Positions 1,907 through 64,000 of a stretch of 64,000 nt of DNA are shown here, piece after piece. This stretch comes from Actinostola sp. cb2023. Lineage: Eukaryota; Cnidaria; Anthozoa; Actiniaria; Actinostolidae. The translations under genes were made by a program, and so were the position numbers. A model generated the notes under the pieces. It saw nothing but the letters and a program-made list of their open reading frames with translations, was not told the DNA's origin and searched no databases. Each line of letters begins with the position of its first letter. The first letter of the stretch is position 1. The stretch lies in assembly GCA_033675265.1 (NCBI GenBank), contig JAUJYZ010000189.1, positions 62,001-126,000 of the forward strand, written 5' to 3'.

Positions 1907-2952
1907 TTAATTCATCAGAAATCTTCGTCTTCTGTTGCTTAAACAAGCAGTCAGGTGAATTACAATGGAAATAAATGCTCGTTTATGTCTCCAACGACCA
2001 GAAATACAACGATAGGTTTTAAGAAATCCAATGGCATGTTCTACTTTAACTTGACATCTTCGTAGTTCTCTGTTTATCCTTTGTAGCCTTGCATTTCCTC
2101 TGATTTGATTCCTCTTTTTGGGCCTCACAATAACTGGATGGGGAGGATAACCAAGGTCTGCAAGAATATGACATCCAGCAGGCAAAGGAAGGTCGCCCCC
2201 TGGACCAACACTTGGCATCATATTAAAACAATTGGTGTCGTTTAAGTGACCAGGATATCTATGTATAATATGAAATGCACATTTCAGTTTGCTAAAATAT
2301 ATCCTACTAGTTTTGTACAATATATTTCAACTTACGCTGCCGAGCAATGAACTATCATGCCATCTGGTGTAACAATGAGGTGGCTAGCCATAAAATGTTT
2401 GTTCTTGTCGCCACGATAGAAAAGAGATTGTCTCCGTGATGGTCGCCATATCGCATGGGTAGTGCCGTCAATTATTCCAACACAAGTTGGAAACTTTTTC
2501 CAGTGATTTTGCCAGCTTCGCCATTCATTTGCCGTTGGCCATTTAATTTCGTTGACAAAAACCTCCAGCATTAATGGGATAATGTCCTTGACGCTTCTGC
2601 TTACATAAGTAATGTCTACACTGAACATACTTGCGAGGGTTTGTAAACGCGGGTATCGTCTTAGCCATATCATAGTTAGAAGTATCCTGTTTCGTATTGT
2701 TAGTCGTTGAATTCGTAGCCTAGCAGCATTACGACGTTGGAAGGCCAGTATCGGTAGTCTCATCCTTATCACAATCTCTTGAAATGTTTCTATAGTTTCT
2801 CCGGTTAGATACCAAAATTTAATTGGCGAATTTGTAATGACAGAGTAATAATCACGGCCACCGTTCATCTCAGGGCCAAAGACGCCTAAACGATCCAACA
2901 CATTCAGTGGATATTCATCTAAACCTGAACTATTAACATTATTATGAAACAA
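1907..2952 (-). CDS. DDE_Tnp_4-type transposase, two exons
   Basis: Transposase that would cut and join the element ends. Exon 1 is 2336-2952 and exon 2 is 1907-2258. The 77-bp intron has a GTAAGT donor and a TTATACATAG acceptor, and splicing keeps frame across the SAA/YPGH junction. The N-terminal part (about residues 45-125) looks like a helix-turn-helix region. The RNase H-like DDE core shows GIIDGT (first Asp), ILADLGY (second Asp) and VEHAIGF (Glu), the spacing of HARBI1/IS5-like nucleases. Total is about 320 aa, close to the family norm. The start at 2952 is the first Met of the open frame and is not certain. No stop interrupts the core, so this copy could have been active recently. It is divergently oriented to the partner gene starting at 3520. 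Confidence 0.85.
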
Positions 2953-3452
2953 GCCATACTAAAAATTTCAAAAGAAAAACGGGGTAGCGTTTATAATTCT
3001 GAATTTGGTACAATAACACAATAATCATTGATATTTCAGCAAAGAAGAACGGAAAAGGTGGTGGTTGCATACTTGCTTATGTTGTTCGCTTCACGGTATG
3101 CAGGAGTTCACGGAAAAAAAAAACTAGTAGGTAGATATTTCATTGCCCACAAGAATGCATGAGGTCGTGCACACTCGCAAATAGTTGAATACTCGGTTTC
3201 TCAGGTTTGATGTCCTAAACTGCGAGGCGGTTGTGTTTCATGCATTCTAGAACACCATGACACCTCAAAAATAACGAGAACCTGCTATATCAGGCCCCTT
3301 GAGATATCATACCCATAATTGTTAGAATCACCTACATAGATAATCAAACCCTTCCACAAGTTGTGATGAATTCACATCTTTTTTTTGCTTAATAAAATCC
3401 CACGATTGTGAAAACAGCATTCACCGGTTAATCCGAGTAACAACTTTTTTAG

Positions 3453-3460
3453 TATAAATA
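3453..3460 (+). promoter_or_regulatory. TATA box of the element's second gene
   Basis: TATAAATA lies about 60 bp before the ATG at 3520. A TCAGTTCAGAG initiator-like stretch about 20-30 bp downstream fits a transcription start near 3475-3480. The 500 bp between this and the divergent transposase (2953-3452) contains no other coding sequence that I can see. Confidence 0.55.
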
Positions 3461-3519
3461 GAACACCACGCGTTCAGTTCAGAGAGAGAGTACATGCAGT
3501 TCAGCTTTTCTCAGTGATC

Positions 3520-36051: not shown

Positions 36052-37480
36052 GATGGCATCTGTGTGCAATATCTGCAACATTCACCGAAGAAACCAACTT
36101 AGTGAGGCACAAGAAAGCACTACACAGCGGACAGTCTTTCAGCTGTGAACGATGCGGGAAATCATTCAACCGTCGCGATATTTTGAAGCAACACCAGAAG
36201 ACACATTCCCAAGACAAAACATATGAGTATGAACACTGTGACCGAAAGTTTTACCGAAAAGACAAGTTATTACAACATCAGAACGTCTGTAAATACGAAA
36301 AACTCTATAACGACCAAGACAAGGGAAAGAAGAAAACGAAGGGCCTCCGAAAAAAACGCGAAAAAGTAGATGATGCAAGCGACCAAGCAGAAAATGAACC
36401 ATGCCAAAGAGAAGAACCTTGTGATTTGAAGTCTGCCATGAAAGACTCCTTAAAAACCTGCAAGTTTAAGCCACAAGTTAGTGAAAAACACGATCTCAGA
36501 CTGTGTTTACAAGGGAACAAGAAAGTACTTCTGAACCGTTTGCAACGCGAACTGAAATTGTAAAGCGTCAGCGTCCAAGTGAAATTTATCAAACCCAAAG
36601 CGGATGGGTCCGATGTAGTGTCAGAACCTCATTTTCGAAGTCTTTGTATGACTACCGTTAACCCTGAAGAACTAGAAGAGCAACTCAATGAAGTCAATCA
36701 AAATATTTTAAGTGTTTTTAGCACCTATCATAGAGAAGGGAGCGGTTGGATGCTGTCTGACGTCCTTCACCTGGATCTGAACATCGCAAAGTACACCCCA
36801 ATCAAAGGTTCCAGCTACCTCCCCTTACCCAAACAATTGAAAGATAAGAAAGCTATTGTCAATATCAAGAACAACGACAACAAGTGTTTCCTGTGGAGTA
36901 TTTTGGCAGCTCTACACCCTGTTCCATACAAATCTAACCCCGAACGAATACATCATTATCAACCACACCTCATGTTCATGTCGATTTGATGTTGTATTCC
37001 CATGGAGAGCAACGTCATTACTGCTTGATTAGAGATCTGAATCGTCTTCTCTCCAGTCAGACGAAACATCAGGGAAAGATGTTTCACTGTCCCCACTGTC
37101 TCCATGGGTTTGTGCGTCAAAACCTCCTAGATGATCATCAACCCCTGTGCAGTCAACATGGCGCCCAGAGAATAGAGCTCCCGAGTGAGGACAACATGTT
37201 TCTGCAGTTTAAAGATTTCCACAAGCAACTGAGGGTACCCTTTGTCATCTACGCTGATTTTGAAAGCTTGACAACCAAGATACAGTCAGCCTCCCCAGAC
37301 CCCAGCATATCTTCAACGGAAAAGTTTCAAAGACACGACGCATGTGGGTTCTCGTATATCGTGCTCGCAGAATGGTCAGACTATTGTCAACCACCAGTCC
37401 TCTACCGCAGGGAAAATGCGGTGGACACATTTCTCGAATCGTTACAGAAAGGTTATTGTAGATGGCTTGTACCTAAATGT
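36052..37480 (+). pseudogene. Maverick/Polinton-type protein-primed DNA polymerase, 5' part only, broken
   Basis: N-terminal C2H2 zinc fingers: VCNIC at 36052, then after a frame change CERCGKSF and a further finger (YEHCDRKFYRKDKLLQH). A basic linker follows. The 36579-36989 frame has AIVNIKNNDNKCFLWSILAA, typical of the region before the exonuclease of pPolB proteins in animal Mavericks. The next frame holds another C2H2-like finger (CPHCLHGF) and IYADFESL, the Exo I motif with its catalytic Asp and Glu. Sequence similarity stops near 37480, so Exo II/III and the whole palm are absent. At least three frame changes (about 36090, 36560, 36985) occur. It could not synthesise DNA. It is a remnant of the same broad class of element as the virus-like array at 52-64 kb. 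Confidence 0.75.
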
Positions 37481-37706: not shown

Positions 37707-38940
37707 ATGGCCGATCGAAACCAAGCATTTTGCATTGTTGTTGTAATATTTATACTTCAATTTATCAACATTCAACAGCAACAAATGGCTGCATTGCTGC
37801 TGATGTACTAGGCATGGTTGGCTAATCAGCTAAGGGTTCAAAATATATTGATGAGAAGACGAATAAATAGACGATTACGGCGACAACGCTTGGCCCCATA
37901 TGCATGGACTCTTCCACGTCCAGTAGAATCGTGGTTTGAAATCCATTATCGCGACCCTGCCATACCGCAAGAGTATTTTCGACAGCAGCTAAGGGTCAAT
38001 AAAGAAACTTTTGAAGTGATACGTAATATTCTGGGCGCAAGGATTCAGAGACAAAATTCAAGATATAGAAATTGTATACCACCAGAGGAAGTGTTAGCTT
38101 TGGGCCTATATAGACTCGCACATGGAAATTCGTACTCGAAAATTGCTCCCGTTTTCAACGTTGGCAAATCGACTGTCGTTGAGGCTGTCCAAGACGTAGT
38201 CAACGCTCTCTACGAAATTAGGAACGACCACATCAAGTTCCCTGAAACAGTGGCAGAAGTGAATGCGTCTATGCAAACTTTTGCAGAGTTGACCGACCTA
38301 CCTAACGTTGTGGGGGCTATTGATGGATCCCATGTTAGCATTAAAGCGCCAGTGGACAGTGCACCTGATTATTTTAGTAAATACCAGCAGCACGATTTTA
38401 TTATTCAAGCCGTCGTTGATGGTAGAAAGCTTTTTCTTGATTTTGTATGTGGGTATCCAGGAAGCATGCACGATGGTCGTGTACTAAGACGAAGTCAGTT
38501 ATATACAAGAGCAGAACAAGGACACATATTAACTGTTCCAACAACAAATGTTTCAGGCCGAGAAATAGGTCCGTACCTTGTTGGTGACAGTGCGTATCCA
38601 CTTAGCCCATGGCTAATGAAACCCTTTCCAGAGGGAACACAAGATCCTGATGAAATTCAATTTAACCGAGAATTATCTTCTGGCCGAGTTAAGGTTGAAT
38701 GTGCGTTTGGCATACTCAAAAATCGATGGCGAGTACTGATTAAACGCTTTCATAGCTCCATTGACTTTGCAGTTCGGTGTGCTGTGGCTTGTGCAGTTTT
38801 GCACAACATGTTTACGAAATGGTGATGACTGGGATGAAGAAGACGAAGATGACAATCAGTCCCCTCCACCGAATCATGTAGCAGCAGGTATATTGCGAGA
38901 TGGAGACAGTATTCGAGATCTCCTAAAAGAATCACTCTAA
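37707..38940 (+). pseudogene. HARBI1-type transposase, second copy, with stop and frameshift
   Basis: Related to but clearly distinct from the copy at 24452. The likely original start is ATG 37707. An in-frame TAG at 37809-37811 interrupts the N-terminal hydrophobic/basic leader, so the long open frame begins at Met 37818 in another phase or continues from Ala after the stop. The core shows GAIDGSH, LVGDSAY and KVECAFGIL (D, D, E), with LALGLYRLAHGNSYSKI as the helix-turn-helix region. Near 38815 a frame change removes the acidic tail (DDWDEEDEDD...LLKESL), which ends at 38940. Both lesions are single events, so the element died recently or was trapped. I found no TIR pair. Confidence 0.82.
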
Positions 38941-52188: not shown

Positions 52189-53586
52189 TTACCGAAACAT
52201 ATACCAATCTAGCCCAGCAGCTCCAACTGTTATCATCGCTAAATTAGTATCATGTTTTTTTGATGTCGGTGAAGGTTTTACATCTGGTTTATCTGATTTA
52301 TTTGAAATATCTGGTTTAACATTCTGATGTGGTAATTTAACCTTTGAATGACTCATGTTATTATGTTTTATACCTACCGATTTTGTTTCAGCATTAATAT
52401 CATTCACACCAAATTTCATATCATCGGTTGCTTTTAATAGTTTGTTATTATAACCAATAACAGAATTTGCGTTTATTACAAGATTTGATGGTAACAACCA
52501 ACAACCTACCACAATAGCCATATCTAATTTTTGTTTTGCTTGTTGAATTGCTAGCTGGTATCTTTGTATACTTTTAGAAATGTCTGTCTCAACAATAGAT
52601 GATTCAAATAGTTGTAAGAATACCATTTGTGTTTCTTGTGCAGAACCGGAATTGTCAATAATGCTTGATTGTGTTTGCACTTGAGCTCCCAAAATACAAT
52701 ACACATAAGCCTCAATAGACTGATTCAATCGTGACAGACCAGCTCGAGTCAAACCCCTTGATTCATTTAGCATAAAATAACTATATGGATGCTCTTGTAG
52801 TGGAGAGATATGGTCTAACTTATAACCACCCCAATAACCACTTTCATCTTTGAACTTGAAGGTACCACCAGGCCACTTATTTGTGTACTTACCATCTAAT
52901 TTTTTATCGTACGCTTCTGTAACATCATCTATTTCATCAAATATTTTCTTATAGATACGACCTAAACCACCATTCTCATCACTAGTATATCTAAAATCAC
53001 TATTTGTTGATACATCAAATTCTCGACAGACCTTATTATACCCGTTTTTATCATATTTACTATCAATATTATCGAAGAATTTATCTCCTGGTAGTGGTAC
53101 AGTCATCTGTGATAGTATCCGTCTACATGTAAACAGTATATGGAACTTGAGTAACGACCCAATCATAGGATCATATTTATTTAAAATATCATATCCTATA
53201 CCACAACCAGCGGTCGAACACCACACAGCAAATGATAACTGTTGTGGATAATAAGACATATTAGGACTTCTCAACCATTTATATGCCTCTTTTGAAGTAA
53301 CATGTTTTAATACAAGATCAGTAAATATGTTTCGTGGTTTTATAGTGAATTTTTCGCTTGGCGTGACATAAACATCAAGTGTCACAGGATCATACTCTGG
53401 GGGTGATTTATCAAATTGTGTGCATATAATAGGGTATAATATTTTTATCATTTCTAATTCTTTTGGAAACTGGTGTGTATTATCAATTCGTTTACCCAAT
53501 GCTTTAGTTAATGCATGTTCCACAATGTTATCGTCATAGTGATGTACAGGACCACCAATATCCTTTTTGAAAACATCATATGCCAT
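52189..53586 (-). CDS. Virus-like cluster: 465-aa protein with C-terminal membrane anchor
   Basis: Intact frame. It has a helical N-terminal domain, blocks SYYPQQLSFAVWCSTAGCGIG (about 108-128) and a long, probably beta-rich middle with FKDESGYWGGYKLDHI. A strongly conserved-looking helical block follows (LNQSIEAYVYCILGAQVQTQ at about 275, then QRYQLAIQQAKQKLDMAI at about 335). A Lys/Ser/Pro-rich linker leads to a short hydrophobic tail (LAMITVGAAGLDWYMF). I recall close relatives in several cnidarian genomes, always without a named function. Its place as the last and longest gene of a structural-looking array suggests a virion or particle component, but I see no double jelly-roll signature. 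It lacks the TATATA motif seen at the other starts. Confidence 0.75.
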   Translation of the reverse strand: MAYDVFKKDIGGPVHHYDDNIVEHALTKALGKRIDNTHQFPKELEMIKILYPIICTQFDKSPPEYDPVTLDVYVTPSEKFTIKPRNIFTDLVLKHVTSKEAYKWLRSPNMSYYPQQLSFAVWCSTAGCGIGYDILNKYDPMIGSLLKFHILFTCRRILSQMTVPLPGDKFFDNIDSKYDKNGYNKVCREFDVSTNSDFRYTSDENGGLGRIYKKIFDEIDDVTEAYDKKLDGKYTNKWPGGTFKFKDESGYWGGYKLDHISPLQEHPYSYFMLNESRGLTRAGLSRLNQSIEAYVYCILGAQVQTQSSIIDNSGSAQETQMVFLQLFESSIVETDISKSIQRYQLAIQQAKQKLDMAIVVGCWLLPSNLVINANSVIGYNNKLLKATDDMKFGVNDINAETKSVGIKHNNMSHSKVKLPHQNVKPDISNKSDKPDVKPSPTSKKHDTNLAMITVGAAGLDWYMFR

Positions 53587-53664
53587 ACCACCCCAATCGA
53601 AATATTTTTTTATTCAATATCTTCTTTTGTTACCATATAATATATATATGTGATTATTGTTATA

Positions 53665-53800
53665 TTAAATTGGTGCTCTCATAAATTCCTTAAAAGTATT
53701 AAGTAAAATTTCAGTTAAGCAAATTAATAAAACTATTTTTATGAATCTGTTTTTTAGAATTTTCTAATGCTTTCAACCGTTTTTCAAGATCATCAGACAT
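53665..53800 (-). pseudogene. Virus-like cluster: small coiled-coil protein, frameshifted
   Basis: Starts MSDDLEKRLKALENSKKQIH (ATG 53798-53800), preceded by TATAATATACA. Open for 29 codons to a stop; the next phase continues for 16 codons to a natural stop at 53665. A single-base change near 53712 would join them. Too small to assign. Confidence 0.5.
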
Positions 53801-53904
53801 TGTATATTATAAGTTTTATCCTTTTAAACATCTATCATATCGCAACTTGTATATATACCCTCCATAAGGTGTTGTATCAAAGGATAAAGTTATTTCTTTG
53901 GATT

Positions 53905-54047
53905 TATAAGCTGCTCTACAATCTCCTTTTTCAATTCCTCCCTCAACTTTTGAACATCTGGAACATCGTTTTTTTTTTAATCCTTATTCCGTTTCACCCT
54001 AATACTACTCTTTAGTTTTTCATATTATCAGTCATATTATCAGTCAT
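53905..54047 (-). pseudogene. Virus-like cluster: decayed small ORF
   Basis: A start with a TDNM repeat (ATG near 54046) stops after 11 codons. A downstream frame encodes a charged helix (VQKLREELKKEIVEQLI) ending at about 53905. Probably a small helical protein with at least one indel in an A10 run near 53976. Confidence 0.4.
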
Positions 54048-54059
54048 AATGTGTTCAAA

Positions 54060-54491
54060 TTATTTCTCATCAATCTTGTTATCACTCAAGGCTTTTGATA
54101 CAAGATCACTTATACTATCTTCTTTTGATTTTGCAAGCTGAATAGTATTTTCATGTTTTGTTACCTTTTTAGTAAGTTTTTTCGTGAAAACTGTACAACT
54201 AGCTGATATTAAACCTAACAACCCACCAACAGCAGATAAAGGAACACCAACAATTATACCAGGTCCTGTTAAACTAGTAGTTACACCAGAACCAGTTAAA
54301 ATGACAGACAAGACACCTGTTGCAACTGCAGTTTTATGAAATATTCCTCGTATCTTAGCATATTTTTTCCTAACATTTTCGTAATGTTTTACCTCTGTTC
54401 CTAGTTGAGACAAAACCATATTTACTTTGTGTAATCTGAAGTTTTCACCAGTTTGTGGTATATCTGGATAAATCGCATCATAATCAACCAT
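54060..54491 (-). CDS. Virus-like cluster: 143-aa glycine-rich two-segment membrane protein
   Basis: Intact. An N-terminal amphipathic helical part (LSQLGTEVKHYENVRKKYAK) precedes two hydrophobic, Gly/Ser/Thr-rich segments, about residues 50-75 (TGVLSVILTGSGVTTSLTGP) and 77-98 (IVGVPLSAVGGLLGLISAS), with a Lys-rich coiled-coil end (KKLTKKVTKHE). The layout suits a membrane-active or internal virion protein. The start follows TATATATATA with no spacer. I recall similar proteins in cnidarian genomes, unnamed. Confidence 0.7.
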   Translation of the reverse strand: MVDYDAIYPDIPQTGENFRLHKVNMVLSQLGTEVKHYENVRKKYAKIRGIFHKTAVATGVLSVILTGSGVTTSLTGPGIIVGVPLSAVGGLLGLISASCTVFTKKLTKKVTKHENTIQLAKSKEDSISDLVSKALSDNKIDEK

Positions 54492-54500
54492 ATATATATA
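54492..54500 (-). promoter_or_regulatory. TATATATA motif abutting a start codon
   Basis: On the minus strand TATATATAT directly precedes ATG 54489-54491. It belongs to the recurring start-site motif of this cluster (also 53801, 55606, 56612, 57047, 57296 and 57706). Confidence 0.5.
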
Positions 54501-54518
54501 ATATTATCTTTTATTTTT

Positions 54519-55605
54519 TTATATGATTTCAATTACCATTCGCATAGGGTAAATTCCAGTGTTAATGCTTTGGTTGCTAGAATCTGCGACCCAAATCCTA
54601 ATACTATTAAGAGGAGATTTTTTACGAACGCGCGTATTGAGCGCCAAAAACCAATAGCATGGAGAATACGTTTTGTACAAGGCTAAAACTGCTTTAGCAA
54701 AGAGTTCAAGGTATTTGTGATGGTTTTTGAACGGTAAAAGTGAAATTAGAGTGTTAATCCAAAGTGAAAATTTGATTTGAAAACTGTCCACATGGGCTAG
54801 ATCTGTATATTTGCTAGTATTGCTGATGTTTCCCCCTGAATTACCTCAAATTTGAAACAAATAGCAGGAAAATGGCTTTGTACAACGCTAAAACAGCTTT
54901 AGGCAGACAATTTACTTTGTTTTTAATAGTTTGTGCTTGGTTAAAATAAAATTAGAGTGTTAATCCAAAGCGAAATTCGAAATTCAAACTGTCCAAAAGG
55001 GCTGGTTTTTGGCGCTTTTGGCGGATATTACGCGATGTTGAAATAAATATCCTCTTAATATAATCATCATTTTTAATAGGTGTGCTCAATGGATTATTAC
55101 AGGATATCTTTTCTCCAGCCTTGTTTAATTCAACACATGCTAATATTTGGGAATAATTATTATTTAATATAACTTGTGTAGAATCAATAAGATCACAATA
55201 AATACAGACATCTTGAGTAGGTTGACTAATATTGATGTTATAATTGGTATTTGCTCCAAGACTTATTGTAATGTTTAATAATTTTGATAAACTTACATTT
55301 AATTCAACCTCTACTGTCGGGGTGATATTATATTTTTTATCTACAATTGTGATTGAAACTTTTTTCTCACCAAATGAAACCGCTTTATCAACAACATTTT
55401 TAAAACTAAAATTAGTGTAGTTTCCTTTCGGAATCCGTATCAAAACATTCCCATCTCCATCTGAAATAGTTCCTTCACTTGGAATATTATACAAATGATT
55501 ATGAAAACTACAACTTACAAGTGATATATGTGTACTCTTTTTAATAGGATTTTTAAACCACAAGGTTTCATCTGCTTTTGTTTTTTCAATATACAATATT
55601 ACCAT
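54519..55605 (-). pseudogene. Virus-like cluster: penton-like (single jelly-roll) protein, interrupted by a MITE
   Basis: From ATG 55603-55605 the protein shows ISLVSCSFHNHLYNI (residues about 27-41), a Gly/Asp turn region with VLIRIPKGNYTNF, several beta-strand-like stretches and VCIYCDLID (about 132-140). These blocks resemble the putative penton/minor capsid proteins of Maverick-like elements. The frame enters a TTAA-flanked MITE (54611-55054) after residue about 182. The natural C-terminus (WVADSSNQ...MRMVIEII) continues on the other side and stops at 54519. The open 217-codon frame therefore has a false tail made of MITE sequence. Function by analogy only. Confidence 0.65.
54611..55054. 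mobile_element. 444-bp MITE, TTAA target duplication
   Basis: TTAA at 54607-54610 and 55055-55058 flanks GAGGAGATTT...; the right end reads the inverse (aaataTCCTC). An inner inverted match (gcgccaaaaacca / tggtttttggcgc) lies about 30 bp further in. The body contains a diverged direct repeat of about 130 bp (54672-54800 and 54877-55005). Removing one TTAA copy with it restores the reading frame of the penton-like gene. Confidence 0.8.
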
Positions 55606-55618
55606 TTATACTATATAA
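55606..55618 (-). promoter_or_regulatory. TATATAGTATAA motif before the penton-like gene
   Basis: On the minus strand the sequence between the preceding gene's stop and ATG 55605 is only about 13 bases and contains TATATAGTATAA. Confidence 0.45.
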
Positions 55619-56611
55619 TCATCTTTTCTTTTTATATCTTTCAACAAAATACAAAACAACAGCAACTATCAATAACCAAGCGTTTTTAGCTAGGAATCCA
55701 ATAACCTCACCCGCGGTTCTGAAAATAATTGCTCCTACCATACCTGGCAATATCTCACCTAATTTTTTACCAAGGGTTTTTAATCTGTTTCCTAAACCTT
55801 TTACAACACCGGATAATCCCGATTTTAGACTAGAAATAATAACACCAATAATAATACCAACTGCAGATACAACAGAAAAAACAGTAAAACCATACTTTTT
55901 AAAAACAGCTTTTATACGATCTCTCAGAGACATTCGTTCTTCTATAACCTCATTTTGTTCTTCTAATTGTTCAATCTCATTTCTAGTTTCTTCAATCTGT
56001 TCACGGAGTGATATATTCAATCTTTCTCCTTGAGAATCAGCTTGAGATATATTATCCAACTCTTCTTCTAATGTTTGTAATTTTTCTCGATGTGAAAAAA
56101 TAGTTCTTTCATTATTCTCAACAACTTTTTCAGCAGGATCTCCAAGATAGTTTACAATTGTTTTAGGTAACTTACCATTTAATTCACCCCCAGCATTAAA
56201 CAGAACATGGGGTTTGCTGCCCAGTCTATTAAATCTTACTATCACTCTATCATATTCATCAATTGTAGTGACGAATGGAGAGTTTTTAGGATTTACATTA
56301 GGATACTTGGATTTGATTATATCCCAAGCTTCTTCAACTCTTTCTTCGCGATGTTTAACAAGGTCTACCATTTCTATGTCTTCTCTTGCCCTTCTTTCCC
56401 AATCTTCATTGCTTTCATCGGAGTTCTTAAATAATTTATATCCACGTTCTTTTGATATACCCCTTCTACTAAACCGTTCTTTAGTTCTTTCCCACCAAGT
56501 TTGTCTAGTTTCTTTTTGTTGTGGTAATAATTCCTGTAGATCATCATCTGTGATGGGGTCGTTTATATTTACTGTTTCAAGTGGATTAAAATCTAAACCA
56601 TCAGCTTCCAT
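55619..56611 (-). CDS. Virus-like cluster: 330-aa coiled-coil membrane protein
   Basis: Intact. Residues 1-60 are acidic then basic (TWWERTKERFSRRG). Residues about 85-155 form a compact segment with SPFVTTIDEYDRVIVRF and HVLFNAGGELNGKLP. A long acidic coiled coil follows (about 160-220, EKLQTLEEELDN... REQIEETRNEIEQLEEQ). Two hydrophobic segments, about 240-262 (FTVFSVVSAVGIIIGVIISS) and about 300-320 (AWLLIVAVVLYFVE), end in KKKR. The C-terminal Gly-rich amphipathic stretch between them (LSGVVKGLGNRLKTLGKKL) could be lytic or membrane-bending. Only 13 bases separate its stop from the start of the next gene. I know homologues in cnidarians without assigned function. Confidence 0.75.
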   Translation of the reverse strand: MEADGLDFNPLETVNINDPITDDDLQELLPQQKETRQTWWERTKERFSRRGISKERGYKLFKNSDESNEDWERRAREDIEMVDLVKHREERVEEAWDIIKSKYPNVNPKNSPFVTTIDEYDRVIVRFNRLGSKPHVLFNAGGELNGKLPKTIVNYLGDPAEKVVENNERTIFSHREKLQTLEEELDNISQADSQGERLNISLREQIEETRNEIEQLEEQNEVIEERMSLRDRIKAVFKKYGFTVFSVVSAVGIIIGVIISSLKSGLSGVVKGLGNRLKTLGKKLGEILPGMVGAIIFRTAGEVIGFLAKNAWLLIVAVVLYFVERYKKKR

Positions 56612-56626
56612 TTACTATATATTAAT
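56612..56626 (-). promoter_or_regulatory. TATATAGTAA motif before the 330-aa gene
   Basis: On the minus strand TTAATATATAGTAA ends directly at ATG 56611. Same pattern as the other genes of the cluster. Confidence 0.45.
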
Positions 56627-56644
56627 AGATAATAATTAGTTTTT

Positions 56645-57046
56645 TTATATAAATTTCGATGCTAAATACCCTGCTCCCAACATACCACCACCCACATACA
56701 TCATTTCATACTGTTTTTGCTTTTTGTTAGGTTTATAATAATCGGAAAATTGAGGTTGATGTGTTTTGGAGTATATCCTAAAAGCATAATCAGTATCAGA
56801 TAGATTGCTATCAGCTATTTGTTTATTCTTATATTGCATCTCCAACCATTCTTCATACTCTTGTTTCTTCTTTTGCCATTCACCCATATTCTTCTGATAA
56901 AGTTCTATAGCCTTATCATGTCGAATTTTCTCTTCATCGATGTGTTTACCATCAGAACTTAGATATTTAGCTAAATACATTGAACCGGTGAAGGCACTAG
57001 CGTTCAAAGCAGCACCTGCGATCATCATTATGACAGCGCTGGCCAT
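56645..57046 (-). CDS. Virus-like cluster: 133-aa membrane protein
   Basis: Intact. A hydrophobic N-terminal segment of about 25 residues (SAVIMMIAGAALNASAF) is followed by a highly charged helix (KAIELYQKNMGEWQKKKQEYEEW, about 45-70), a Tyr/Lys-rich stretch and a short Gly-rich hydrophobic end (YVGGGMLGAGYLASKFI). No signal cleavage site is convincing. It could be a small virion membrane protein. The start is preceded by TATATATAA (minus strand). Confidence 0.65.
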   Translation of the reverse strand: MASAVIMMIAGAALNASAFTGSMYLAKYLSSDGKHIDEEKIRHDKAIELYQKNMGEWQKKKQEYEEWLEMQYKNKQIADSNLSDTDYAFRIYSKTHQPQFSDYYKPNKKQKQYEMMYVGGGMLGAGYLASKFI

Positions 57047-57075
57047 TTATATATAATAATATAACATTTTTCTTT

Positions 57076-57295
57076 TTATACCGATTTTGGTAGGATTTTT
57101 TGATCTTCAAGATATTGCTTCACATACATACTCCCAGATAGTACTAGCACCCCTTTTCCATAGTTTGTTAAACTACTACTAGGGTCGTTGATGAATGATT
57201 CTTTCATAGCCTTTTTTTCCGATGTAACCAATTACTGCAGCGATTCCAACAACTACTGCTGCATCCGTTACTGATTTAATCAATTTGTTTTCCAT
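57076..57295 (-). pseudogene. Virus-like cluster: small membrane protein, frameshifted in an A run
   Basis: ATG at 57293-57295 after TATATAAA. An N-terminal hydrophobic segment (DAAVVVGIAAVIGYIG, residues 11-26) is followed by an A7 run at about 57213-57219 where the frame goes wrong and stops after ten more codons. The phase with one base fewer stays open to a stop at 57076. Probably a 72-residue protein in the ancestor; homopolymer sequencing error is possible. Confidence 0.55.
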
Positions 57296-57336
57296 TTTAT
57301 ATATTCTTAATAAAGATTTTATTTTTTATATAGTTT

Positions 57337-57705
57337 TCATTCCATACCTATTCTTGGTATAGGAATTGTATTAGTTTCGGGTGTGATGTCTTCTAAGGTT
57401 TTTACAGGTGTATATACTTTTTTATTCTTTCTCAATCTAAAATATAAGTCAACACCTGTTAAGATGATTCCGGCTAATGAAAGAGCAGTTGTTAGTGATA
57501 TTTCTGGGATCCATTTGGAAGTTTCTTCAACACTATCATCGATTGTTTCACCATTTTCACGATTCTTTTCTATTTCAAGAGCTTTCTTAGCTTTCTTATG
57601 GTATTCGGCCAATCGTTTTCCAGCGGCAACCTTCTTAGGATCTTTTTGTTTTATAATTGGAGTTTCTGGTTCTTTGGTAATTATATCATTTGATTCTTCT
57701 GACAT
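57337..57705 (-). CDS. Virus-like cluster: 122-aa single-pass membrane protein
   Basis: Intact. An acidic start is followed by a Lys-rich helix (KKVAAGKRLAEYHKKAKKAL, about 25-44), a second acidic stretch and one clear transmembrane segment (about 70-92, LTTALSLAGIILTGVDLYF), then a short basic/Pro-rich tail. The basic helix could bind nucleic acid, as in core or scaffold proteins of DNA viruses, but that is only a guess. AATATACT precedes the start by 7-14 bases. Confidence 0.65.
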   Translation of the reverse strand: MSEESNDIITKEPETPIIKQKDPKKVAAGKRLAEYHKKAKKALEIEKNRENGETIDDSVEETSKWIPEISLTTALSLAGIILTGVDLYFRLRKNKKVYTPVKTLEDITPETNTIPIPRIGME

Positions 57706-57781
57706 TTTTAATATACTATTCTATAAGAATAATATTTTAAGTAAAATTCCAAGAGATGCTCAAGAGATTCCAAGAGTCTGC

Positions 57782-58561
57782 TCAAGAGATTCTATGAAAA
57801 TATTTATTGTGTTTTTTTAATGTGTTCCTTGTTATAAATCTTCTACTACAATATTTACATTTCAATCTAATATCAATACAATAATTGTTTAGTTCTTTGA
57901 TAATAAGATCATAATCGTTAGATACTATACATTTGAAACCATTTTCTTCATATTTTTCTAACAAGTTCTTCTGTTCCATAGAAAGAACACCTTTAGAATT
58001 AGGTGTTTTAAATTCAATACAAAGACCACAATATGTTTTATGGTAGTTATTAATAATTAAATCTGGTTGACCCTTCATATAACCTTTTTTATATGATTGA
58101 ATTATTTTAAAACTAAAATCCTGATTTTCACCTAATCCAGCAATCAAAAGTAGATTAGGATAGAACCGCCTAATATATTGAACCACTTTAGTATGTAGAT
58201 CATATTCATTTCCTATCTTGAATGCCAACGTTTTGGGTTTGTTAAACATTCTATAATAACCATATTTTCTTATTGATGGTAATACCGTAGAGAATACCCA
58301 ATCTTGAAAATGTTTAGCCGCTTCCATTTTAGAACTAAAGATTAGAGAGTATAATCCTGGTTCCTTTATGAAAATAGTGTGTGGTTGTACATTTTCAGGG
58401 AGCGGTGTTTTACCGCCCCCTTGGTATTCCATATTCTGGTGCACATTTTCTATACGAGAATTTATCGTGACGTAGTTCCGGTGGCGTGATAGAAGCTGGC
58501 CGTCAAAATTGTTTTGATCGACGCGCAAAATTGCAACAGCGTGGCCTATGAAGTTTATCAT
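57782..58561 (-). CDS. Bro-N / VRR-NUC nuclease / C2H2 fusion protein
   Basis: Residues about 45-105 match the C-terminal half of the BRO N-terminal DNA-binding domain (TIFIKEPGLYSLIFSSKM and WVFSTVLPSIRKYGYY). Residues about 130-230 are a VRR-NUC-type PD-(D/E)XK nuclease: GQPDLIINN carries the catalytic Asp, CIEFKTP the Glu-x-Lys, then SMEQKNLLEKYEENGF. The last 25 residues are a C2H2 finger (CKYCSRRF...HNKYFH). BRO proteins are typical of large DNA viruses and phages. VRR-NUC enzymes process branched DNA. Together they suit replication or recombination. The first 40 residues look unlike Bro-N and no TATATA motif precedes Met 58561, so the original N-terminus is probably lost at the boundary with the ISL2EU element. 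Confidence 0.75.
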   Translation of the reverse strand: MINFIGHAVAILRVDQNNFDGQLLSRHRNYVTINSRIENVHQNMEYQGGGKTPLPENVQPHTIFIKEPGLYSLIFSSKMEAAKHFQDWVFSTVLPSIRKYGYYRMFNKPKTLAFKIGNEYDLHTKVVQYIRRFYPNLLLIAGLGENQDFSFKIIQSYKKGYMKGQPDLIINNYHKTYCGLCIEFKTPNSKGVLSMEQKNLLEKYEENGFKCIVSNDYDLIIKELNNYCIDIRLKCKYCSRRFITRNTLKKHNKYFHRIS

Positions 58562-58621
58562 TTTGAAGACAAATATCTCTTAGTCAAAAAGTTGTTGATC
58601 CTTTAAACTGTGATTTCTAAA

Positions 58622-61558
58622 ATGGGCAAAGTATGCATAGTGTATGGGTGCAAAGCCAGAGAGTCTAGAGAGAAAAAGAGTGAAGAAATCCGATTTCATC
58701 GCCTGCCGATAGATGAGCCAAGACGATCGTTTTGGCTTAACCCTTTGACTCCCACGGCGCCCGAAACCGCCCGTAAAAATCGATACTGCTTTGAAAAATT
58801 CTAACTTTCTGAATTTTCGTAACATCGATCTCATGGCCAGTTATTAGTGACAACTAGATAACTCTTCATATTTTAACCTCAAGTAAACTGACTTACAGGT
58901 CCGATTTCTGGGCATTAGTTCAATTTGTTTGCCATAAAAATCAAAAATGCGTGTTTTTGACGCAATTTTACACCTCGAAAATGAACGACATTTGACTTGG
59001 ATTTTCTTCCAACATACATCCTTGCGAAACAAAACGCCACTTTCTCAGCAAACTTCCATCTCTCTTCTTGATATAGTCGTGAATTTTGCCCTCTCTTTTC
59101 CTTAACTCGCCGAACAATAGCCATTTCCTTAGGACCACTTTCGCTAACACGTGTTTTCCTTCTGCACGCCCGAAAAGGATGCCGGGAAACATCCGGGAAT
59201 TTCGGCATAGATCTCCCCCGAAAATCCCTCTTTTAAGAAATATATAGAGTGTCGAGCCACTCGGTCCTACAGGCAAAATATTGCACCGGTTGCATTCTTT
59301 ACAAGTCCAAAGTCGCCAAAAATGCCTTTGTAGGTCCTGGAATCCACCACAGAAAGACCAGAGAGACGATTTCACAATTGAGTCCGCCATTTTGAATTTC
59401 CAAACGGCAAAGTCGAAATCTGTTCGTGAATTCGTATCTAAACTCCTGAGTTCTTCCAGGAGAACGGTCTCTACCACACCAGTCAAGCTTAATGATGCTG
59501 TCCTGGGGGCTTCTGTGGTGAATAATGGCTATAAACACTCTAAAAATGCAAAATTGACCGCTCCTAGTAGCTACGAGATGCCGTTCCTCGAGGAGATTCA
59601 CCAAAAGAGAAAGATTACGTCAGAACCTGAGCCCGTGGGCTTTCAGAACTGTCAAGATTTCCATGGAAACCCCTTATATGGAATCGAAATTTCCTATGGC
59701 GTGATTAGGTCCAGAAAATCGCTAAAAAACTCAAAAATCTCTGGGTGTCAAAGGGTTAAAGCGATCAACAAAAGGGATGAAAAAACTGAAGAATTGTGGA
59801 CTCCTGTGGACAAAAGTGCAAGGATCTGTAGTAAACACTTTATAAAAGGTATTTACTTATGTTTTTCACAAAATATCTGAAGATTTTAACCTGACAAACA
59901 TTGAAAACTTAGCAGATTTGCGAAAGAAAGTCAGCCATTAATATTTGTTGTTGCGTGACAATCGTCGATGGTTGTCGATCAAACGAATTAGTTTTGAAAG
60001 TTATATCTAGATCGTTCCCATCATCCCATCATATTACACTACCTGAAACATATTTTGTATTGTAGCATTTTTCGTATGATTAAATACTTTTCGATCGATT
60101 TCTTTGAGGTCAGGTCTCCATATATAATTGTGTATGCGTGACAATGTTTACAATGTTTATGCAAAATATGTTTACAATTACAGGCAAAAGTGATGATCCA
60201 TTTAGCCCTGACTTTGTGCCTTCGGTCAACCTTGGTTATTTCACCGTAAAAACACCATCTGCTTCGAGTATTGATCGTTTTGACAGATTTTCGAGACGTA
60301 ATTACGAGAAGACGCTGCGCGAAATGGATCCTATTCCTACCGCAAAGAGGCAGTTGGATTTTGGCACTTATAAAGATACGGATCTGGTTATTGCTGATGC
60401 CCTTTTGGCCCTTTCAACTAACCCTTCTAATCAAGAAAACAAAGAGAATAGAAATGGTAAAATATTGAATCTTTATTCTTACGAAACAAATAAAAGTCAG
60501 TTTTGTTTTCATATGAATTTATGTTAATTTATAATGTATTTTTTTCCTCAACAGATCAACGTAATATCCATGACCTATGTTTAAGAAAAATCAACGATTT
60601 GAATATCGAAAAGAAAAACCTTTTGAGAGAACTGGAGTGTCTTCAAGGCCAAATTGGTGAATTAACTATTCAAAGAAAGCTAATGAGGGCAAACTTTCTA
60701 TCTTCATTCAGCAAATCTGCTGATGAAGTAACTTTATTTTATTGTGGTTTACCCTCGCATAAATGTTTTTTGTGGCTTGTGGATTTTCTGTCCATTCATC
60801 TGCCATCTTCAAGAATCCTTAATCCCGCTGATGTCCTTTTTCTTGTCCTGGTTAAACTCCGCCTCAATGTACCTCACAAAGACTTAGCCTATAGATTTGA
60901 TATATCCCAGAGCCTTGTTTCCTTTCTGTTAGACCATACCATACCAACCGTTGCTAGTCATCTAAAGTTTTTTATTCATTGGCCAAGTAGAGATGCTATT
61001 TTACATTCACTACCACAGTGTTTTAAAGATACATACCCTGGTTGCATATCAATTATTGATTGTACTGAAGTGTTCATCGAATGCCCGTCAAACTTCACAG
61101 CCAGATCATCAACATACAGTAACTACAAACATAACAATACAATAAAGTTTTTGGTCAGCATTGCACCATCAGGTGGTGTATCATTCATATCACGAGCATT
61201 TGGCGGAAGAACATCTGACAAAGTCATTAGTATTGAATCTGGGTATCTGGATTTAATTCAACATGGGGACATTGTATTAGCTGACAGGGGCTTTTTGATT
61301 AATGATGAAATAGCTTCTAGAGGGGCTAAACTAATAATGCCTGCATTTCAAAGGGGGAAACAACAGTTAAGTGCCAGAGAAGTAGAAATGAGTCGAAGAG
61401 TGGCCCATGTTAGAATTCATGTGGAGCGGGCGATGGAAAGACTAAAGAATTTCAGGATCCTTGGTGAGCGTATGTCCATGAATATGGTACCCCATTCAGA
61501 CAGTATAATGACAATTTGTGCAGCAATCATGAACATGCATCCCAATTTAATAAACTAG
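58622..61558 (+). CDS. ISL2EU transposase with N-terminal THAP finger, exon 1 split by a MITE
   Basis: Exon 1 is 58622-59849 (MGKVCIVYGC...FHRLP...FWL, then after the MITE WTPVDKSARICSKHFIK). Exon 2 is about 60184-60453 (DDPFSPDFVPSV). Exon 3 is 60555-61558. Exon 3 has a coiled coil (KINDLNIEKKNLLRELECLQ), the helix-turn-helix VPHKDLAYRFDISQSLVSFL, and the full catalytic set: IIDCTEVFI (Asp), IVLADRGF (Asp) and IHVERAMERLKNF (Glu). Removing the 1,015-bp MITE and one TTAA gives an open THAP exon. There is no other lesion, so the DDE part is intact. The transposase exons end at a TAG at 61556. Confidence 0.85.
58741..59755. mobile_element. 1,015-bp piggyBac-type MITE in the THAP exon
   Basis: TTAA at 58737-58740 and 59756-59759. 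TIR CCCTTTGACTCCCA at the left matches the right-end reverse complement CCCTTTGACACCCA at 13 of 14. TTAA with a CCC terminus is the piggyBac pattern. Open frames of 90-200 codons on both strands inside have no transposase motif, so I call it non-autonomous. Confidence 0.85.
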
Positions 61559-61716
61559 ATTATTATATCATTAGATGTATGATTTCAATGCCATCATTTA
61601 TATAGTTTCAATTTAAATGATGATAATTATTTATTTATAATTCAATGTCATTTAAATGAAATAAAGTATTCTATATATATATATAGTTATATTTTCCTGA
61701 ATTCTATTTATTTAAT

Positions 61717-63445
61717 CTATTTTTTACATTTGGGACAAAACCATTTTCCAGTGGGCTTTCTCTTTACACTCACACAGGCATAATGGAACCATCCAACTTT
61801 ACAATCGTTGTTATCACAAAAAAACATTTTCCCATATTCTGGCTCCTCGCAGAGACACCAATTCATCTGTAAACTTTCTTCCTCATTTGGCTGGCCATGG
61901 GACTTGTCCATTATTTTCTGTGTCAATAACTCTGGAATGATGTGTGTGGGGACAAAGGAAGAGCAACAATCAAATAACTTTTTACAAAATTCATTGTTTT
62001 TTAACACCCTCACTTTTGTGATACATGTGTTTGAACTTGGGTTGGTATATATAACAAAATCACAATAGTTGCAATCATAAACCAACATCTGGAACTGGAT
62101 TTGTGTGTAGTATCTGTGGGATTGTCGCAGCTGCAAATTGTCATCCAAGCAGAAGTCGGGGTTCTTTGCTGCAGTTTCTACTGAGGAGTCCTTGTATTTA
62201 TAAGGGCACTTAATTTCTAACACACCAGATCCACAACAATCACACGAAATTATGCCATCTGCTGTCGCTCCCATAAAAAAATTTGAATGACTGATTAAAA
62301 ATCCAGAAAGCTCACATTGAAAGTTAGTATGCTGAGATGTTTGTATTTTGGTATATTCTGTTCTTGCGATAGATTCATTGTCAATTCCCCATTTCACGGC
62401 AGAATTTTTGTAGAGGTTGTAGGACTTGTAGCCCATGATCTTCGAAATCAGGTTGTCAGTTGGAGTGGAAGTCCTTCTAACCATTACATCATGTGCCTTG
62501 GTACCAGTTATTCTACCTTTTCTGTGCTCATACCAGAGAGGGCTTATGTTTTGCTTTTTTGTCATTTCAAATAGATTACTGATTTGAGTACTGGAGCAGG
62601 AGTAAGATGAGTAGATATTAGCAGCCTTGTTTTGGAGATCAGCATTCTGTAATTTCCTGTTTTCGTCACTGCATAAAGTTGTTAGGGGAATAGGAAAATA
62701 TTGTCTTACAGTTGAGCTTGAGGTAGGAGAGGATGCAGGAGGGTACTGTAGATCATCAGGTGGAGGAATCAATGAAAAGAAAGCAGCTTTAGGACAGATC
62801 TGTTGGAAGGAGTTAAGAATTGTGTGGTCTGGGAGAGGATCTTTGCTAGATGGTATGATGCATACTACTGATTTTTTTCTGTTGTTATTTAGTTGTGTTT
62901 GAATGTCCATGACTGTAGTTGGCTTGATCTAATAAAGACATTAAATTGGAACATGCAATGAATGACTGGTTTATGATCAAATTTATATATTAATTGCGAA
63001 ACTTACTTGCTTTCTAAACACTCTGTTCCATTTGCAAGCTTCAGATGTTATTGACTTCTGATTCAATCCAAATCTAACACCTAACTCAATTTTGAACAAC
63101 ACTGCAGCAATGTGACTGCATGATTCTCCAAGTCTGTATTAACCAACAAAAAAGATATAGTATAAATATTAAAATTTAATTCCCTTACTGTGTGGTTATT
63201 TATGGCTCGATTATGATATGCTATAGATATATTTAATAGTCAATCATGCATACGTACCCTGCAGCACAAGTGCAATGAGCACAATAAATATCTGCTGTCT
63301 CTTTGTTTAGACACACCCATGGCTGGTGAGCTTTGTCATTTGTCCTCATTGAAGGAAGGACACCAGCTTTCAAGAAGCAAAATGGAGATTCCTCTATGTC
63401 AATGTACATTACTTCCTGAACATGGCCACTCTCTACGTACCTTTG
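61717..63445 (-). CDS. SWIM - YqaJ-like nuclease - PHD finger protein (ISL2EU second gene)
   Basis: Exons 63258-63445, 63007-63133 and 61717-62928 with good GT/AG sites and consistent phase; upstream exon(s) not found. The first junction builds a SWIM finger, CAHCTCAAG joined to LGESCSHIA (C-x-C...C-x-H). The YqaJ/lambda-exonuclease fold follows: YEHRKGRITGTK, KWGIDNESIARTEY, FMGATADGIISCDCC (Asp), VLEIKCPYKYKD (Glu-x-Lys) and YYTQIQFQMLVYD. The C-terminal 45 residues are an ING-like PHD finger (CLCEEPEYGKMFFCDN...CKVGWFHYACV...WFCPKC). YqaJ enzymes resect DNA ends, so this may process donor or excision ends. The PHD finger suggests reading histone H3K4 methylation; binding is inferred from family. 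Confidence 0.85.
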
Positions 63446-63714: not shown

Positions 63715-64000
63715 TTAATACAGAATCGATTTCAAATTGCTATCTTGAATTTCCATCAAAGCATCGGCAATGACAAACATATAACAATTGATGGTTCCTG
63801 ATCCACCAATTCTCCTCTTCATCTCCAGTTTAACACCGTCTTTTGTGCTATTCAAAACCAAACCATTACCATGAATATCATTATCTGGGTAAGTTCTCAA
63901 ATCAATCCATAAGGAAGGCAAATTTATCTGAATAAAAATCTTTAGGCGTGATATTATCAGTCTCACCAAATCTTGATCTAATCGATTTCCAAAAATCAGT
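63715..64000 (-). pseudogene. Virus-like cluster: C-terminal part of another gene, frameshifted, runs off the window
   Basis: The last 84 codons of the minus-strand frame end at 63715 (LKSILY). They hold IDLRTYPDNDIHGNGL, STKDGVKLEMKRR and GGSGTINCYMF, a beta-rich C-terminus of a protein I recall from cnidarian virus-like elements. Upstream of about 63908 the plausible coding phase changes; a GATT unit occurs twice in a row at the switch, which suggests a 4-bp tandem duplication. The 5' part lies outside the window. Confidence 0.6.

What the first reader, a model, noticed from the sequence alone, without database searches (positions are those of the whole stretch)
52189..58561. Compact, co-directional virus-like gene array with a penton-like gene and no visible transposition gene
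At least nine minus-strand genes are packed with gaps of mostly 10-110 bases, unlike the intron-rich transposons around them. The set contains several small membrane proteins, a coiled-coil membrane protein, a penton-like candidate, a Bro-N/VRR-NUC/C2H2 enzyme and a 465-aa anchored protein. I can name no integrase, protease, packaging ATPase or double jelly-roll capsid. It may be an endogenous relative of Mavericks/adintoviruses, a Polinton-like virus, or a new group.
Basis: partly seen in the sequence, partly recalled or inferred. Interest (0 to 1): 0.9.

Follow-up and report, generated by a model that had tools for sequence, protein, structure and literature searches.

The report
Decayed copy of mosaic Polinton-type virus
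This stretch is the worn-out structural-gene half of what is most likely an integrated Polinton-type DNA virus; the same genome carries about a hundred relatives of its predicted capsid gene, four examined copies are framed by near-identical inverted ends and 5-base target duplications, and the copies form a gene-by-gene patchwork that likely reflects recombination between lineages.

Summary
They are not a new integrase-less virus group but most likely the late half of a decayed Polinton-type element. The 217-aa gene is a penton (predicted fold of an intact relative), broken by an inserted repeat. The predicted major capsid gene begins at 63.7 kb and runs past the window's end, where a broken integrase and polymerase-like pieces follow. 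Transposon sequence and a deletion separate the halves; the packaging ATPase is missing here.

The same 424-Mb genome gave 101 scored capsid-gene places, 95 without stops. Four copies with both ends in hand are 13.9-15.7 kb, have 97-99.8% identical terminal repeats beginning AGTAG, and show 5-bp (not 6-bp) target duplications. No maturation protease was recognised. A conserved 465-510-aa, mostly helical protein with no fold match (311 database relatives) is a marker of the lineage. Copies are mosaics: genes of one pair range from 99.7% to 63-68% identity. The polymerase assignment rests on motifs alone. New variant of a known kind; the window copy is dead, the lineage looks recently mobile.

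The parts
52189..53586 (-). F0: conserved 465-aa protein (up to 510-520 aa in other copies), mostly helical, C-terminal helix; its start is damaged in this copy
   Evidence: 311 relatives at E<=1e-3, 120 listed; 98 places in the own genome, 10 with stops; model; no fold match. Damaged start read by eye
54060..54491 (-). F2: small protein with a hydrophobic segment, 143 aa here, 170-201 aa in other copies
54519..54791 (-). ORF that contains the separated C-terminal piece of the penton
54593..55072 (.). inserted MITE-like repeat with imperfect inverted arms (57 nt, 72%), breaking the penton gene
   Evidence: relatives lack it
54952..55605 (-). penton: first about 180 residues, then read-through into the insert
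   Evidence: 12 relatives, 11 of them 203-215 aa; fold of intact relative P0121; 150 places in the own genome
55619..56611 (-). F1: coiled-coil protein with two hydrophobic segments near its C-terminus
   Evidence: 1313 relatives at E<=1e-3, 120 listed
56645..57046 (-). F3: small protein, N-terminal hydrophobic segment
57076..57295 (-). F8: gene of 72 aa in other copies, split into two frames here
57337..57705 (-). F7: small protein with one hydrophobic segment in most copies
57782..58561 (-). Bro-N / VRR-NUC / weak C2H2 protein, first residues lost
   Evidence: Bro-N 1.2e-13, VRR_NUC 3e-5; alignment begins at residue 29 of a 277-aa relative
58610..62910 (.). later transposon material between the two halves: HTH_Tnp_4/DDE_Tnp_4 ORF (60503-61558 +), YqaJ/PHD ORF (61717-62910 -); ORF 58610-58804 looks like a THAP start (recalled motif)
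63715..64000 (-). C-terminal part of the predicted major capsid protein, in two frames; the gene continues past the window's end, followed there by a broken rve integrase and PolB-like pieces
   Evidence: tblastn 59-74%; L039 = C1423:126001-131000

Best explanation
The array is most likely the late-gene half of a decayed, integrated Polinton-type DNA virus, cut off from its predicted capsid, integrase and polymerase-like genes by later transposon sequence and a deletion. Shown: gene content, order, termini, copy number, mosaicism and decay. Inferred: intact relatives would copy their DNA with a protein-primed family-B polymerase, insert it with the rve integrase (5-bp target duplication), and package it with the A32-type ATPase into an icosahedral shell of a double jelly-roll protein with penton vertices. 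Several small hydrophobic proteins (F1, F2, F3, F7, F8) and F0 are predicted virion or membrane proteins, which would suggest a lipid membrane under the shell. Seven of eleven gene families often have a TATA-like box about 26-35 bases before the start codon, so they are likely transcribed one by one by the host polymerase. The patchwork among copies likely arose by recombination between diverged lineages present in one cell. The copy in the window can do none of this.
For: Penton fold. Related copies with rve 7.9e-10, Pox_A32 2.6e-12, Capsid_N 4.7e-5 at best in 3 of 6 members. Block polymerase-like/integrase/capsid/ATPase/F5 in this order in 7 of 10 copies read. Penton downstream of the capsid gene on the same strand within 15 kb at 67 of 101 capsid places; reverse order at 1 of 138 penton places. 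Terminal inverted repeats and 5-bp duplications in 4 of 4 copies with both ends in hand. The window copy continues into capsid, integrase and polymerase-like pieces. dN/dS 0.08-0.32 for capsid, ATPase and F0 where dS could be estimated.
Against: No Pfam, NCBIfam or PDB family recognises the polymerase-like protein as a polymerase, and hhalign against phi29 polymerase gave probability 1.2; the assignment rests on motifs recalled from memory. Capsid_N is just under Pfam's cut-off (23.2 against 24) and the capsid fold was not modelled. No protease was recognised. Target duplications are 5 bp, not the 6 bp reported for vertebrate Mavericks. F1 shows dN/dS up to 0.98. The hydropathy scan did not call a C-terminal membrane segment in F0 and called one in 2 of 4 capsid proteins, so the membrane idea is weak.
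Confidence: 0.85

Rival explanations
1. A new virus group that truly lacks integrase, packaging ATPase and double jelly-roll capsid.
For: None of these genes lies within 52189-58561.
Against: Complete relatives have them next to the same late genes, and this copy itself continues into capsid and integrase.
Confidence: 0.03
2. A Polinton-like virus (PLV) or virophage rather than a Polinton.
For: No protease recognised, as in PLVs; a Bro-N/VRR-NUC fusion is reported in the dinoflagellate PLV OmPLV (passages); the MCP of Nematostella P-3_NV hits the PLV-type PgVV (passages).
Against: An rve integrase is present; PLVs lack it with a single exception (passages). PolB-like motifs are present.
Confidence: 0.08
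3. An adintovirus.
For: Penton fold matches the MELD-virus penton best; rve integrase present.
Against: No chromodomain recognised in the integrase and no OTU domain in the polymerase-like protein by Pfam at E<=1.
Confidence: 0.04
4. For the mosaicism only: gene conversion or unequal exchange between integrated copies in the host germline, not recombination of replicating viral DNA.
For: About a hundred copies sit in one genome, and breakpoints do not favour gene boundaries (7 of 55 within 80 bp, 19% expected).
Against: Exchanged genes come from lineages differing by about 25-37% at the nucleotide level, divergent for efficient conversion; this is inference.
Confidence: 0.3

Closest known systems
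Polintons / Mavericks (Polintoviricetes)
   Same: rve integrase, A32-type ATPase, penton, predicted MCP, PolB-like motifs, long terminal inverted repeats; (AGT)2 ends in 2 of 4 copies, as in vertebrate Mavericks
   Different: 5-bp target duplications in 4 of 4 copies instead of 6; no protease recognised; 13.9-15.7 kb, at or below the usual 15-20 kb; Bro-N/VRR-NUC gene in 5 of 10 copies; conserved F0 and F1 of unknown function; all but the integrase and the end gene on one strand
Cnidarian Polintons such as P-3_NV of Nematostella vectensis
   Same: F0 and F1 have named relatives in Nematostella; published: cnidarian MCPs are the only animal ones outside the main Maverick-Polinton cluster (PMC10120064, passages) and P-3_NV MCP hits PgVV at E 0.01 (PMC4028283, passages)
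OmPLV of Oxyrrhis marina (PMC12721341, passages)
   Same: Bro-N fused to VRR-NUC, A32 ATPase, terminal inverted repeats
   Different: OmPLV has a helicase-PolB fusion, a tyrosine recombinase and a Holliday-junction resolvase; here rve integrase and a C2H2 end on the Bro-N/VRR-NUC protein
Adintoviruses (MELD viruses)
   Same: Penton fold and rve integrase
   Different: No chromodomain or OTU domain recognised by Pfam; no protease recognised

Membership tests
Polinton / Maverick | RVE-type integrase | tested here: met
   PF00665 E 7.9e-10, 39.3 bits against cut-off 32.6
[quoted passage not shown]
   Motifs DFEC, HNLSGYDSHLF, DANNLYGWAM, NNSVFGK, TDTDS present (their meaning is recalled); no Pfam, NCBIfam or PDB polymerase match; hhalign with phi29 negative
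Polinton / Maverick | packaging ATPase of the A32/FtsK kind | tested here: met
   PF04665 E 2.6e-12, above cut-off
Polinton / Maverick | penton (single jelly-roll minor capsid protein) | tested here: met
Polinton / Maverick | double jelly-roll major capsid protein | tested here: inconclusive
   Capsid_N in 3 of 6 members, best E 4.7e-5, 23.2 bits against cut-off 24; no PDB sequence match; no structure model made
Polinton / Maverick | adenovirus-type maturation protease (in most Polintons) | tested here: inconclusive
   No protease family in Pfam scans of representatives of the gene families except F8, which was not scanned; genome search with PF00770 empty but its controls were silent
Polinton / Maverick | 6-bp target-site duplication | tested here: not met
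   5 bp in 4 of 4 copies: CCTCG, GGACC, AATGC, TGAGG. I therefore call it Polinton-type (integrase plus polymerase-like), not a canonical Maverick
Adintovirus | integrase with C-terminal chromodomain | tested here: inconclusive
   No chromodomain at E<=1 in Pfam; a diverged one could be missed
Adintovirus | hexon reciprocally recognisable by BLASTp | not tested
   No adintovirus hexon sequence was at hand
Polinton-like virus (PLV) | general absence of RVE integrase | tested here: not met
   rve present; PLVs lack it with one exception (passages)

The most novel reading that the evidence does not exclude
A family-level lineage of integrating DNA viruses, recently mobile in this host, that builds a protease-independent, membrane-lined jelly-roll capsid with a new tail-anchored helical protein (F0), integrates with 5-bp duplications and evolves by constant gene exchange between lineages.
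Probability: 0.3. Interest if true: 0.75.

Novelty: new variant of a known kind. Interest (0 to 1): 0.6.

Why it matters
Whether animal Polintons still make virions is an open question, and published work already sets cnidarian capsid genes apart from all other animal ones (PMC10120064, passages). Here one genome holds about a hundred capsid-gene copies, nearly all with open frames, near-identical terminal repeats in the copies examined, selection on capsid genes and strong mosaicism, so activity, packaging and recombination become testable. F0 (311 relatives) and F1 (1313) are conserved markers that could find this lineage in existing data. The 5-bp duplication is a clean handle on how its integrase differs from that of vertebrate Mavericks.

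Tried and rejected

My first guess that F0 is the double jelly-roll capsid was dropped when its model proved mostly helical. The idea that shared promoter junctions are the recombination points was rejected: 7 of 55 breakpoints lay within 80 bp of a gene boundary, 19% expected. The TATA count has a second peak 6-10 bases before the start codon, which may be plain A+T richness.
Full report
WHAT IS THERE. The window is G000:C1423:62001-126000 of an unnamed 424-Mb genome. On its minus strand, 52189-58561 holds seven ORFs of 122-465 aa. Shuffled versions of the stretch gave a longest ORF of 59 aa on average and 117 at most in 300 trials; GC is 0.317 against 0.390 for the window outside 52.0-58.7 kb.

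RELATED COPIES. The genome search gave 98 places for F0 (10 with stops), 150 for the penton, 101 for the capsid candidate (6 with stops, 374 candidates at first look) and 39 for the polymerase-like protein (13 with stops, 722 candidates); all are lower bounds by the tool's own statement. I read 10-kb stretches of ten copies and clustered their ORFs. Seven of ten (C1541, C886, C1396, C1069, C226, C50, C1415) carry the block polymerase-like (1175 aa when whole), integrase on the other strand, capsid candidate (413), ATPase (209), F5 (about 200), followed by F7, F8, F3, F1, penton, F2, F0 where preserved, and an HNH gene or another gene of about 200 aa on the other strand. C535, C927 and C1260 are decayed or rearranged in what was read; in C1260 the polymerase-like ORF points the other way. 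Bro-N/VRR-NUC is found in 5 of 10 copies, twice in some. Pfam on representatives: rve 7.9e-10; Pox_A32 2.6e-12; Capsid_N 5.7e-5 (just under cut-off); Endonuclease_7 1.4e-5 in the polymerase-like protein; HNH_3 2.1e-9. No polymerase family matched and hhalign with phi29 polymerase was negative; that call rests on motifs I recognise from memory. Over the genome the penton lies downstream of the capsid candidate on the same strand within 15 kb at 67 of 101 capsid places; the reverse order occurs at 1 of 138 penton places; opposite strands within 15 kb at 1 capsid place. F0 lies downstream of the penton at 67 of 138.

TERMINI. Four copies have both ends in hand. Their terminal inverted repeats align over 316 bp (98.7%), 453 bp (99.8%), at least 416 bp (99.8%, cut by the end of the stretch) and 458 bp (97.2%). 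All begin AGTAG, two of them AGTAGT. All four have 5-bp duplications: CCTCG, GGACC, AATGC, TGAGG. Lengths are 13,911, 13,964, 14,633 and 15,715 bp. For C1541 and C50 a second end was sought and not found; C535, C1260, C927 and C1415 were not examined for both ends. Vertebrate Mavericks commonly have (AGT)2 ends and 6-bp duplications (PMC8097293, passages).

THE WINDOW COPY. Past transposon material (DDE_Tnp_4 with HTH; YqaJ with PHD) the C-terminal part of the capsid candidate appears at 63.7 kb. Beyond the window lie the rest of that gene, a broken integrase and broken polymerase-like pieces. ATPase and F5 were not found in the window or the next 5 kb. The penton is broken by a MITE-like repeat, F8 is split, the start of F0 is damaged, and similarity to other copies ends right after F0, so the end gene and terminal repeat on that side are lost. 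It is a fossil.

HOW IT LIKELY WORKS. Capsid, ATPase and F0 show dN/dS of 0.08-0.32 in pairs where it could be computed (dS saturated or zero in 6 of 15 capsid and 3 of 21 ATPase pairs); F1 shows 0.35-0.98. This suggests selection on virion genes, weak for F1. A TATA-like box lies 50-21 bases before the start codon in 44 of 82 genes, against 11.7 on average and 22 at most in 200 shuffles, with the peak at 26-35 bases: capsid 5 of 6, F8 7 of 8, F3 5 of 10, F1 8 of 8, penton 3 of 3, F2 8 of 10, F0 6 of 9; but F7 2 of 9, ATPase 0 of 7, F5 0 of 8, Bro-N 0 of 4. The 82 are copies of 11 families and not independent. Hydrophobic segments recur in F1, F2, F3 and F8 (4 of 4 copies shown each) and F7 (3 of 4), but also in 2 of 4 capsid and, marginally, 2 of 4 F5 proteins; the scan did not call the C-terminal helix of F0. 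A membrane-lined capsid is therefore inference, and so are replication, packaging and integration as described.

MOSAICISM. Nucleotide identity jumps from gene to gene (six copies, eight pairs). C1541/C886: capsid 67.8, F7 62.7, F8 90.3, F3 72.5, F1 93.0, penton 73.9, F2 95.7, F0 99.7. C226/C50: polymerase-like 67.3, F5 98.8, F7 98.8, F8 72.8, F1 99.7, penton 98.1, F0 68.1. Not all pairs jump as much: C886/C1396 stays at 90-100 except F3 (73.7). Breakpoints in the penton-F0 region do not favour gene boundaries (7 of 55). Recombination during replication and gene conversion in the host cannot be told apart here.

WHAT IS KNOWN. Polintons are marked by a protein-primed polymerase and rve integrase, most with a protease; PLVs lack the protease and, with one exception, the rve integrase (PMC4642659, passages). 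Cnidarian MCPs were the only animal ones outside the main Maverick-Polinton cluster (PMC10120064, passages), and P-3_NV is a Nematostella Polinton whose MCP hits PgVV (PMC4028283, passages). [quoted passage not shown] Split or inactivated terminal-protein and vOTU domains in Polinton polymerases, including one from Stylophora, are in PMC11071308 (passages). The adintovirus definition is from PMC11071296 (section 16; also outline, section 14 and passages). A search for Polinton with 5-bp, target site duplication and terminal inverted listed one paper (PMC2836005), whose passages tie 5-bp duplications to TDD-4/5. Most subscription papers are not held, so absence from print is not shown.

VERDICT. 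A decayed copy of a Polinton-type lineage, likely the cnidarian one: real, abundant, apparently recently mobile and under-described. New variant of a known kind.

Noticed in passing
window 36435-37468 (+): Fragments of another, distant polymerase-like protein (32-36% identity to the element's, E down to 2e-27), next to a zinc-finger-like frame and a DDE-transposase-like ORF at 37818-38825.
   Followed up: no
window 58610-62910: A transposon with HTH/DDE_Tnp_4 and a separate YqaJ/PHD ORF sits between the two halves of the element; the pairing with a nuclease recalls ISL2EU elements (recalled, not tested).
   Followed up: partly
L025:1775-2608 and 2684-3496: Two tandem Bro-N/VRR-NUC/C2H2 genes in one copy, while 5 of 10 copies have none.
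   Followed up: no
L020:3064-3687 and L028:3084-3710: The last gene before the terminal repeat is either an HNH endonuclease or an unrelated protein of about 208 aa without any family match.
   Followed up: no
L035/L036 (C927:266000-285999): Two decayed copies lie head to head within 20 kb with equal penton scores, perhaps an inverted duplication.
   Followed up: no
L023:1-2807 (C1260): Polymerase-like ORF in reverse orientation relative to the late genes, so gene order differs in this more diverged copy.
   Followed up: no
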